Positions 58,430 to 58,888 of a stretch of 64,000 nucleotides of DNA are shown here, piece after piece; position 1 is the first letter of the stretch; each line of letters starts with the position of its first letter. The DNA is from Brachionus koreanus (taxonomy: Eukaryota; Rotifera; Eurotatoria; Ploima; Brachionidae), in assembly GCA_016987375.1 (NCBI GenBank), contig PJRA01000343.1, forward strand, positions 1,070,234 to 1,134,233. The letters run 5' to 3'. The notes beneath the pieces were generated by a model that was not told where the DNA came from, did not search any database, and was given only the letters and a program-made list of their open reading frames with translations. A program made the translations under genes and the position numbers.

Positions 58430-58888
58430 ATGAAAATTTTAATCCAACTATCTGTTTTTGTCATTTTCTGTTATCAGGTAAATTTATGTCTGGTAATTTT
58501 GAATTAACAAAAGCTAATTTATTTTTCAAAGATGAGATTTTCTCATGCTGATGAATTAACCGAACCAAGCTTACAAGCGGACTCAGAAGACTCCAAGTTG
58601 GTCAAGCTTATTGGATACTTGGATAACTTAAAAGAAAAAAACAACGGCGAAATTAAGAATTTAATGAATCAAAAATATCAAATTCCTGATGAGAATGTCG
58701 ATCTTGCAAAAGATCATGACTTGGCCAAAAGATACAGGTACGATAAGCGATATCGCTTTGACAAACGATACAGATTTGACAAGAGGTATCGTTTTGATAA
58801 AAGATACAGATTTGACAAAAAAAGGAGTAATGAAGACAAAATAAACAATTTGTTCGAAAAACTACAAAAAAGATATAGATATGATTAA
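58430..58888 (+). CDS. Secreted multi-copy peptide precursor releasing YRFD/YRYD tetrapeptides
   Basis: Exons 58430-58477 and 58532-58888 join in phase to 134 residues. Residues 1-16 (MKILIQLSVFVIFCYQ) plus a few more form a signal peptide, with the intron at its end, as is common in neuropeptide genes. An acidic spacer follows to residue 81. From 82 the chain is a series of dibasic sites and tetrapeptides: KR-YRYD, then four YRFD each between KR pairs (90-111), KKR, a 14-residue spacer, KR and a final YRYD (131-134) followed directly by the stop. No glycine follows any copy, so the products would carry a free C-terminal Asp rather than the usual RFamide. Copies use different synonymous codons (AGG, CGC, AGA, CGT for Arg; TAC/TAT; GAT/GAC), which suggests selection on the peptide. 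AAATAAA overlaps the stop codon. I know no described family with this peptide; a receptor-acting neuropeptide is inference. Confidence 0.8.
58733..58816 (+). repeat. 18-base tandem coding repeats of the tetrapeptide precursor
   Basis: Five successive units encode YR(Y/F)D followed by a dibasic pair, most of 18 bases. Units 2 and 4 start TATCG and units 3 and 5 start TACAGATTTGAC, an alternating pattern that suggests duplication of a two-unit block. Confidence 0.85.

What the first reader, a model, noticed from the sequence alone, without database searches (positions are those of the whole stretch)
58430..58888. Candidate new peptide-hormone precursor: repeated YRFD/YRYD tetrapeptides with free C-terminal Asp
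The reading frame shows a signal peptide, an acidic spacer and six tetrapeptides (YRYD, four YRFD, YRYD) separated by Lys-Arg pairs. The last YRYD is followed directly by the stop codon, so Asp is encoded as the true C-terminus, and no copy has the glycine needed for amidation. Known animal RFamide and RYamide peptides require that amide; acidic, unamidated tetrapeptides of this type are unfamiliar to me. Synonymous codons differ between copies while the peptide stays constant, arguing for selection. A role as neuropeptide or other secreted signal is inference.
Basis: partly seen in the sequence, partly recalled or inferred. Interest (0 to 1): 0.88.

Follow-up and report, generated by a model that had tools for sequence, protein, structure and literature searches.

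The report
Rotifer precursor of Asp-ending tetrapeptides
A small gene in what looks like a rotifer genome encodes a secreted-type protein that would be cut into six copies of the tiny peptides YRFD and YRYD, and look-alike genes occur elsewhere, including in another rotifer, so it is probably an undescribed family of peptide messengers whose function is untested.

Summary
The gene (exon 58430-58477, 54-bp GT..AG intron, exon 58532-58888) encodes 134 aa: hydrophobic leader, acidic spacer, then YRYD, 4 x YRFD and YRYD between Lys-Arg sites. One detail was missed: the last YRYD follows a linker (KKR-SNEDKINNLFEKLQ-KR). The motif is absent from 100 shuffles and was found only in this gene and its collinear second copy in the 83-Mb genome. 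Repeat copies differ almost only synonymously (pooled pS 0.91, pN 0.08). The genome looks like a monogonont rotifer close to Brachionus (a published B. manjavacas vasa primer matches, one mismatch, inside a vasa-like gene). Protein searches found 25 similar proteins; the only two with an organism name are from the bdelloid Rotaria sordida, and nine unnamed ones join these by their spacers. In 26 records, 94 of 102 tetrapeptide units end in Asp, 7 in Gly, 1 in Glu. This supports a conserved precursor of unamidated tetrapeptides, most likely neuropeptides or hormones, in an animal that does have amidating-enzyme genes. Secretion, cleavage, expression and receptor are untested. The tie between the window's gene and the bdelloid group rests on repeats and layout, not spacers, so convergence is not excluded. 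Gly-ending units in a few relatives hint at amide-to-acid switching.

The parts
58430..58477 (+). Exon 1: start codon and hydrophobic leader MKILIQLSVFVIFCYQ
   Evidence: best 11-residue Kyte-Doolittle mean 2.80
58478..58531 (+). Predicted 54-bp phase-0 GT..AG intron (no transcript seen)
   Evidence: identical in the C61 copy; P0015 looks like the same intron position read through in frame (my reading)
58532..58888 (+). Exon 2: end of leader, acidic spacer, six tetrapeptides, TAA stop
58550..58726 (+). Acidic spacer, 59 residues (14 Asp/Glu, 7 Lys/Arg), if the leader is cut after FSHA
   Evidence: counts; cleavage point is inferred
58727..58744 (+). KR + YRYD, copy 1
58745..58762 (+). KR + YRFD, copy 2
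58763..58780 (+). KR + YRFD, copy 3
58781..58798 (+). KR + YRFD, copy 4
58799..58816 (+). KR + YRFD, copy 5
58817..58867 (+). KKR + linker peptide SNEDKINNLFEKLQ
58868..58888 (+). KR + YRYD, copy 6, followed directly by TAA

Best explanation
The gene encodes a preprohormone of a rotifer peptide family. The chain enters the secretory pathway by its leader; furin/kexin-type convertases cut at the Lys-Arg sites; a carboxypeptidase removes the basic residues; the animal releases about four YRFD and two YRYD with free C-terminal Asp (plus possibly SNEDKINNLFEKLQ), which act as neuropeptides or hormones, most likely on a G-protein-coupled receptor. Shown here: the frame, the repeat constraint, the relatives, and convertase-like and amidating-enzyme-like genes in the genome. 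Inferred: splicing, secretion, cleavage, release, signalling and receptor type.
For: Repeats with pS 0.908 against pN 0.077. The two collinear copies differ by no base in exon 1 and intron and by 6 of 357 bases in exon 2; the only change inside a tetrapeptide is synonymous. Relatives: 10 proteins at E<=1 among 811 candidates, 23 at E<=1 among 4397, 23 at E<=10 among 5242; P0017 and P0018 are named Rotaria sordida. With tetrapeptides masked, the window's spacer matches P0001 better than all 300 shuffles, and the spacer of P0011 matches 10 other records, both Rotaria proteins among them, better than all 300 shuffles. P0011, P0015 and P0020 have a hydrophobic start. Convertase P-domain: 8 exon-level matches in the genome; one of them, L024, is closest in the PDB to furin, E 1.1e-167. 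Copper-monooxygenase C-domain: 14 exon-level matches; the best, L027, is a dopamine-beta-hydroxylase relative, but L029 and L028 are closest to the amidating monooxygenase (E 8.9e-49 and 1.8e-26). So the lack of Gly is not explained by an animal without such a gene.
Against: No transcript, peptide or expression data could be consulted. Signal peptide judged by hydropathy only. Of 25 records, 21 do not match the window's spacer clearly beyond shuffles and 3 are borderline, so most ties rest on repeats and layout. Between the two collinear copies 5 base changes alter residues (4 residues, all in the spacer) against 1 synonymous change in the whole CDS, so that comparison by itself shows no purifying selection on the spacer. 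No Pfam model matches the window's protein (at E<=0.01; at E<=1). Tetrapeptides with a free acidic end are unusual as messengers (own knowledge). Whether L024, L028 and L029 are expressed or active was not tested.
Confidence: 0.7

Rival explanations
1. Secreted exocrine or defence peptides (antimicrobial, gut, mucus or pheromone-like) made from the same kind of precursor, not neuropeptides.
For: Layout alone cannot tell endocrine from exocrine; the repeat block is strongly basic (sequence). Lineage-restricted secreted peptides are often defensive (own knowledge).
Against: The tetrapeptide core is held nearly constant while spacers diverge between records, which suits a receptor ligand better than a membrane-active peptide; four residues with net charge near zero after trimming are poor membrane agents (own knowledge).
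Confidence: 0.17
2. The repeat chain works uncut, as a basic segment of a secreted matrix or polyanion-binding protein.
For: The KRYRFD repeats make a regular basic block; Lys-Arg conservation would also be expected here (sequence).
Against: In P0006, P0011, P0012 and P0014 the tetrapeptides are scattered between acidic spacers yet keep their dibasic borders; 16 of 26 records end exactly on the tetrapeptide.
Confidence: 0.08
3. Not a working gene: a decayed or chance frame.
For: No expression data; no named Brachionus protein was returned.
Against: Intact in both collinear copies, pS far above pN among repeats, relatives elsewhere including Rotaria.
Confidence: 0.03

Closest known systems
FMRFamide / RFamide and RYamide-luqin precursors
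   Same: Short peptides with Arg next to a C-terminal-side Phe or Tyr, many copies between dibasic sites; FMRFamide and RYamide precursors are reported for Rotifera in PMC6425005 (passages).
   Different: No Gly for amidation in any of the six copies; Asp after Phe/Tyr is the encoded end. A genome-wide pattern for KR[YF]R-x-G-K (x limited by HWN, so Val is not covered) gave 7 matches against 11 for the backwards control, so no amidated sister gene of this pattern stood out in this genome.
Proctolin (RYLPT; recalled) and pedal peptide / orcokinin (recalled)
   Same: Unamidated invertebrate neuropeptides (own knowledge).
   Different: No sequence likeness beyond an Arg-Tyr pair; proctolin is one copy per precursor and pedal peptides are longer (own knowledge; no comparison was run).
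TRH precursors (Pfam PF05438)
   Same: Many copies of a very short peptide between Lys-Arg sites (own knowledge of TRH); one of 15 members of alignment A2 touched the Pfam TRH model weakly, E 0.023.
   Different: TRH is an amidated tripeptide (own knowledge); the window's protein does not match the model.
FCAP-like precursors of Rotaria (PMC6425005)
   Same: Repetitive precursors already described in print from the genus of P0017 and P0018.
   Different: Their peptides have a fixed length of 11 residues in 8 or 9 copies (passage); here four residues in six copies.

Membership tests
Dibasic-processed peptide precursor (general kind) | Repeated peptides bordered by Lys-Arg sites | tested here: met
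   Six copies; constraint
Dibasic-processed peptide precursor (general kind) | N-terminal signal peptide | tested here: inconclusive
   Hydropathy only (best 11-residue mean 2.80); no signal-peptide program was run
Dibasic-processed peptide precursor (general kind) | Expression in neurons or endocrine cells | not testable with these tools
   No transcript or tissue data
RFamide / FMRFamide-like peptides | Gly before the cleavage site giving C-terminal Arg-Phe-amide | tested here: not met
   All six copies have Asp there
RYamide / luqin | Arg-Tyr-Gly amidation signal | tested here: not met
   YRYD ends in Asp and, in the last copy, at the stop codon
Known protein family (Pfam-A) | Match to a curated model | tested here: not met
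   0 families for the window protein
YR[FYL]D precursors (group proposed here) | KR-[YF]R-x-D repeats | tested here: met
   26 records tallied; 94 of 102 units end in Asp, 7 in Gly, 1 in Glu; 16 of 26 records end on the tetrapeptide
YR[FYL]D precursors (group proposed here) | Spacer similarity to other members | tested here: inconclusive
   Window to P0001 yes (0 of 300 shuffles reach it); P0009, P0020, P0022 borderline (6, 4 and 3 of 300); the other 21 of 25 records no

The most novel reading that the evidence does not exclude
Rotifers carry a phylum-wide peptide signalling system whose ligands are unamidated tetrapeptides ending in Asp, which arose from amidated YRL/YRF-type peptides when the amidation Gly changed to Asp (a one-base GGY to GAY step), so that the receptor came to read an acidic carboxylate end in place of an amide. 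P0007, P0021, P0024 and P0025, with one Gly-ending unit among Asp-ending ones, would be traces of that switch or of its reversal.
Probability: 0.2. Interest if true: 0.82.

Novelty: new variant of a known kind. Interest (0 to 1): 0.62.

Why it matters
A 2018 review (PMC5818035, passage) listed Rotifera among phyla whose neuropeptide signalling had yet to be explored; single peptides have been reported since or before (vasotocin-type in PMC3253786, CCAP in PMC6660194, FMRFamide/RYamide/FCAP in PMC6425005; passages). Small peptides with a defined acid end, in a genus where gene editing works (B. manjavacas, PMC10395877, passages), make a testable ligand-receptor pair. A switch between amide and acid ends inside one precursor family would be a rare case for asking how receptors follow such a change. 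Four-residue free-acid peptides are cheap to synthesise and easy to miss in annotation.

Tried and rejected
Rejected: insect or mite origin (my first guess from low G+C and short introns). Published data on monogononts fit (G+C 24.95-31.14% in PMC11954553; B. koreanus assembly 85 Mb in PMC7310846; passages), and the vasa primer match decided for a Brachionus-like rotifer. Against or neutral: the published mlh3 target of B. manjavacas gave no match at up to 3 mismatches; the B. manjavacas vasa reverse-primer and guide sequences match near the vasa gene only with 5 mismatches each, so it is a relative, not that species. The bdelloid spliced leader (recalled letters) gave none, which fits the reported absence of a leader in B. 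plicatilis (PMC1925144, passages) but also fits any other animal.

Rejected: another gene of this kind in the genome. The C54 match is weak (E 0.157, two stops); the wider pattern KR[YF]R-x-D-KR gave 9 matches, 8 in the two known copies and 1 elsewhere with a TAA in the frame, against 2 for the control. C61 was compared with the window over two sampled 9.9-kb stretches: the pieces over 1 kb lie in the same order at 85-93% identity, shorter pieces range from 70 to 96%, and a couple of short pieces lie out of order. I read C61 as the other haplotype or a large duplication.

Amidating-enzyme relatives are there all the same (L029, L028).

Led nowhere: viral contigs (55 pattern stretches, none confirmed), PDB sequences for the precursor (none), COX1 in the genome (none), rRNA search (not completed), Pfam. 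P0019 (YRLG, YRLMG, YRLAG repeats) carries no weight in the argument: it was in the query alignment A2 yet is not listed at E<=10. P0022 is not listed there either, and P0005, where YRFD is part of longer Gly-ending units, has E 2.4. All three were nevertheless counted in the tally.

Full report
What is there. Removing the 54-bp GT..AG stretch 58478-58531 joins a hydrophobic start (MKILIQLSVFVIFCYQ) to MRFSHADELT. The protein has 134 residues: leader, a 59-residue acidic spacer (14 acidic, 7 basic), five tandem KR-tetrapeptide units (YRYD, then four YRFD), KKR-SNEDKINNLFEKLQ, and KR-YRYD at the stop.

Chance and constraint. KRYR[FY]D occurs six times in the window, against none in 100 shuffles. 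In the 83.26-Mb genome the form with a following Lys is listed ten times, all in this gene and its C61 copy; the control pattern gives 1. Among the six copies, pS is 0.908 and pN 0.077 pooled over 15 pairs. Copies 1, 3, 5 share TACAG and copies 2, 4 share TATCG in the core, so the array probably grew by doubling a 36-base pair of units (inference).

The second copy. C61 carries the gene at 97% protein identity over 118 residues. Exon 1 and the intron are identical, exon 2 differs at 6 of 357 bases; four residues differ, all in the spacer, and one change is synonymous, in the first YRYD. Flanking bins of up to 300 bases differ at 2.3-8.4%. C61 follows the window in two sampled 9.9-kb stretches (pieces over 1 kb at 85-93%; a couple of short pieces out of order), so it is probably the other haplotype. 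With 5 base changes that alter residues against 1 silent one, this pair does not by itself show purifying selection on the spacer; it shows only that the peptides were spared.

Whose genome. The vasa HRM forward primer of Brachionus manjavacas (Table 1 of PMC10395877, section 14 read) matches twice with one mismatch, control 0, both times inside an open frame of 886-887 residues with DEAD-box helicase motifs (motif reading recalled). The paper's legend says that the B. manjavacas vasa gene has a single exon (passage). The guide and reverse-primer sites lie close by with 5 mismatches each; the mlh3 target was not found. Size and G+C fit monogononts: B. koreanus 85 Mb and B. calyciflorus and B. 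plicatilis 24.2 and 26.4% in PMC7310846 (passages), 24.95-31.14% in PMC11954553 (passages); the window's 4-kb bins run from 21.0 to 31.2%. I take the window as a Brachionus-like monogonont; the species is not settled.

Relatives. Three protein searches gave 10 (E<=1, 811 candidates), 23 (E<=1, 4397 candidates) and 23 (E<=10, 5242 candidates) proteins, in all 25 distinct ids. Only P0017 and P0018 carry an organism name, Rotaria sordida, a bdelloid rotifer; the other 23 have none, so that they are rotifers is inference. With tetrapeptides masked, the spacer of P0011 matches ten records (P0006, P0007, P0008, P0010, P0012, P0013, P0014, P0016, P0017, P0018) better than all 300 shuffles, so eleven records form a bdelloid-type group. 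The window's spacer matches P0001 (z 7.7, 0 of 300); P0009, P0020 and P0022 are borderline; the remaining 21 of 25 do not stand out. The tie between the two groups thus rests on the repeated motif and the layout. I find homology more likely than convergence, because the same tetrapeptides, borders and terminal position recur, and both placed taxa are rotifers, but the spacer test does not prove it.

Leader and intron. P0011, P0015 and P0020 begin with clear hydrophobic stretches. P0015 reads MKFNVLTFLLVVFCFYK, then 22 residues that look like an intron read through in frame, then VHAISTNN. That is the position of the window's intron and would give a leader ending in VHA, comparable with FSHA here. 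The DNA of P0015 was not seen, so this is a reading, not a test.

The acid end. By a fixed rule (four-residue units after two basic-type residues) one search counted 102 units in 26 records (25 found proteins and the window's): 94 end in Asp, 7 in Gly, 1 in Glu. Longer units, such as those of P0019 and P0021, are not counted by this rule. Three of the seven Gly units are from P0019, whose membership is doubtful. The other four (P0007, P0021, P0024, P0025; one each) sit among Asp-ending units; in P0024 and P0025 the Gly is followed by Gln-Arg or Gln-Lys, not by a dibasic pair, so amidation there is less sure. Sixteen of 26 records end exactly on an Asp-ending tetrapeptide, as the window does; whether each such end is a stop codon or a contig end was not checked.

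Enzymes. The genome has 8 exon-level matches of the convertase P-domain, one of which is closest in the PDB to furin, and 14 exon-level matches of the copper-monooxygenase C-domain. The best of these is a dopamine-beta-hydroxylase relative, but two others, L029 and L028 on contig C25, are closest to peptidylglycine amidating monooxygenase (E 8.9e-49 and 1.8e-26). Both cleavage and amidation thus seem available, so a free Asp looks chosen rather than forced. Activity and expression of these genes are unknown.

How it probably works. Leader, dibasic cleavage, trimming, release of YRFD and YRYD, action on a receptor. The first part is the standard route of peptide precursors (established knowledge); the last is inference. 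A GPCR is the commonest receptor for such peptides (own knowledge). The near-constant core, with Phe, Tyr or Leu at position 3 in most units, suggests a receptor that reads Tyr-Arg-x-Asp.

What is known. Full-text searches for YRFD with neuropeptide (one paper, the motif inside an unrelated firefly venom protein, passage), YRYD with precursor (30 of 127 listed, none on peptide precursors by title) and six longer motif strings (five papers, none on rotifers or neuropeptide precursors by title and abstract) found no description. Searches for rotifer or Brachionus with neuropeptide precursor, tetrapeptide, RFamide, proneuropeptide and related terms (one search listed 15 of 313) led to PMC6425005, where passages report FMRFamide, RYamide and FCAP-type precursors from Rotifera and YRFD does not occur in the main text; its supplements were not open to me, so a listing of this family there is not excluded. 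PMC10730642 (abstract and passages) describes an APGW/AKH precursor of B. plicatilis; its sequence was not compared. The gene is therefore not a member of the RFamide or RYamide families by their defining amide, though it may work like them.

Verdict. A real, conserved rotifer peptide precursor of a familiar general kind with an unusual acid end, not named in what I could search. Interest 0.62.

Noticed in passing
window 9487-9560, 10183-10256, 10918-10991 (-) and 11175-11247 (+): Three tRNA-Cys genes in a row at about 700-base spacing beside a tRNA-Phe.
   Followed up: no
L002 about 2542-2751 and window 61932-62138: A 210-base element at 95.7% identity lies downstream of the gene in the C61 copy and again in the window; it holds GGTGTTCGAATC, like a tRNA B box (recalled), so it may be a SINE-like mobile element. 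ARAGORN found no tRNA in it.
   Followed up: partly
window about 59709-60952 (+): A trypsin-like serine protease gene lies directly downstream of the precursor gene, with a Ser/Thr-rich stretch after the protease domain.
   Followed up: no
L031 and L032 (G000 C2 and C27): Two vasa-like single-frame genes on different contigs with near-identical helicase halves and more divergent repeat-rich N-terminal halves.
   Followed up: no
P0021: A relative mixes FRYD, YRYD, a long Gly-ending unit (YRFRPKAHILKFG) and a terminal YRLG, so amidated and acid ends may be made from one chain.
   Followed up: partly
P0005: Three KR-YRFDKVYDVG/NPG-KR units: here YRFD is the start of a longer, Gly-ending peptide, perhaps another family.
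   Followed up: no
window about 58375-58389: A pyrimidine-rich stretch ending in CTAG just upstream of the start codon could be a 3' splice site of a 5'UTR intron.
   Followed up: no
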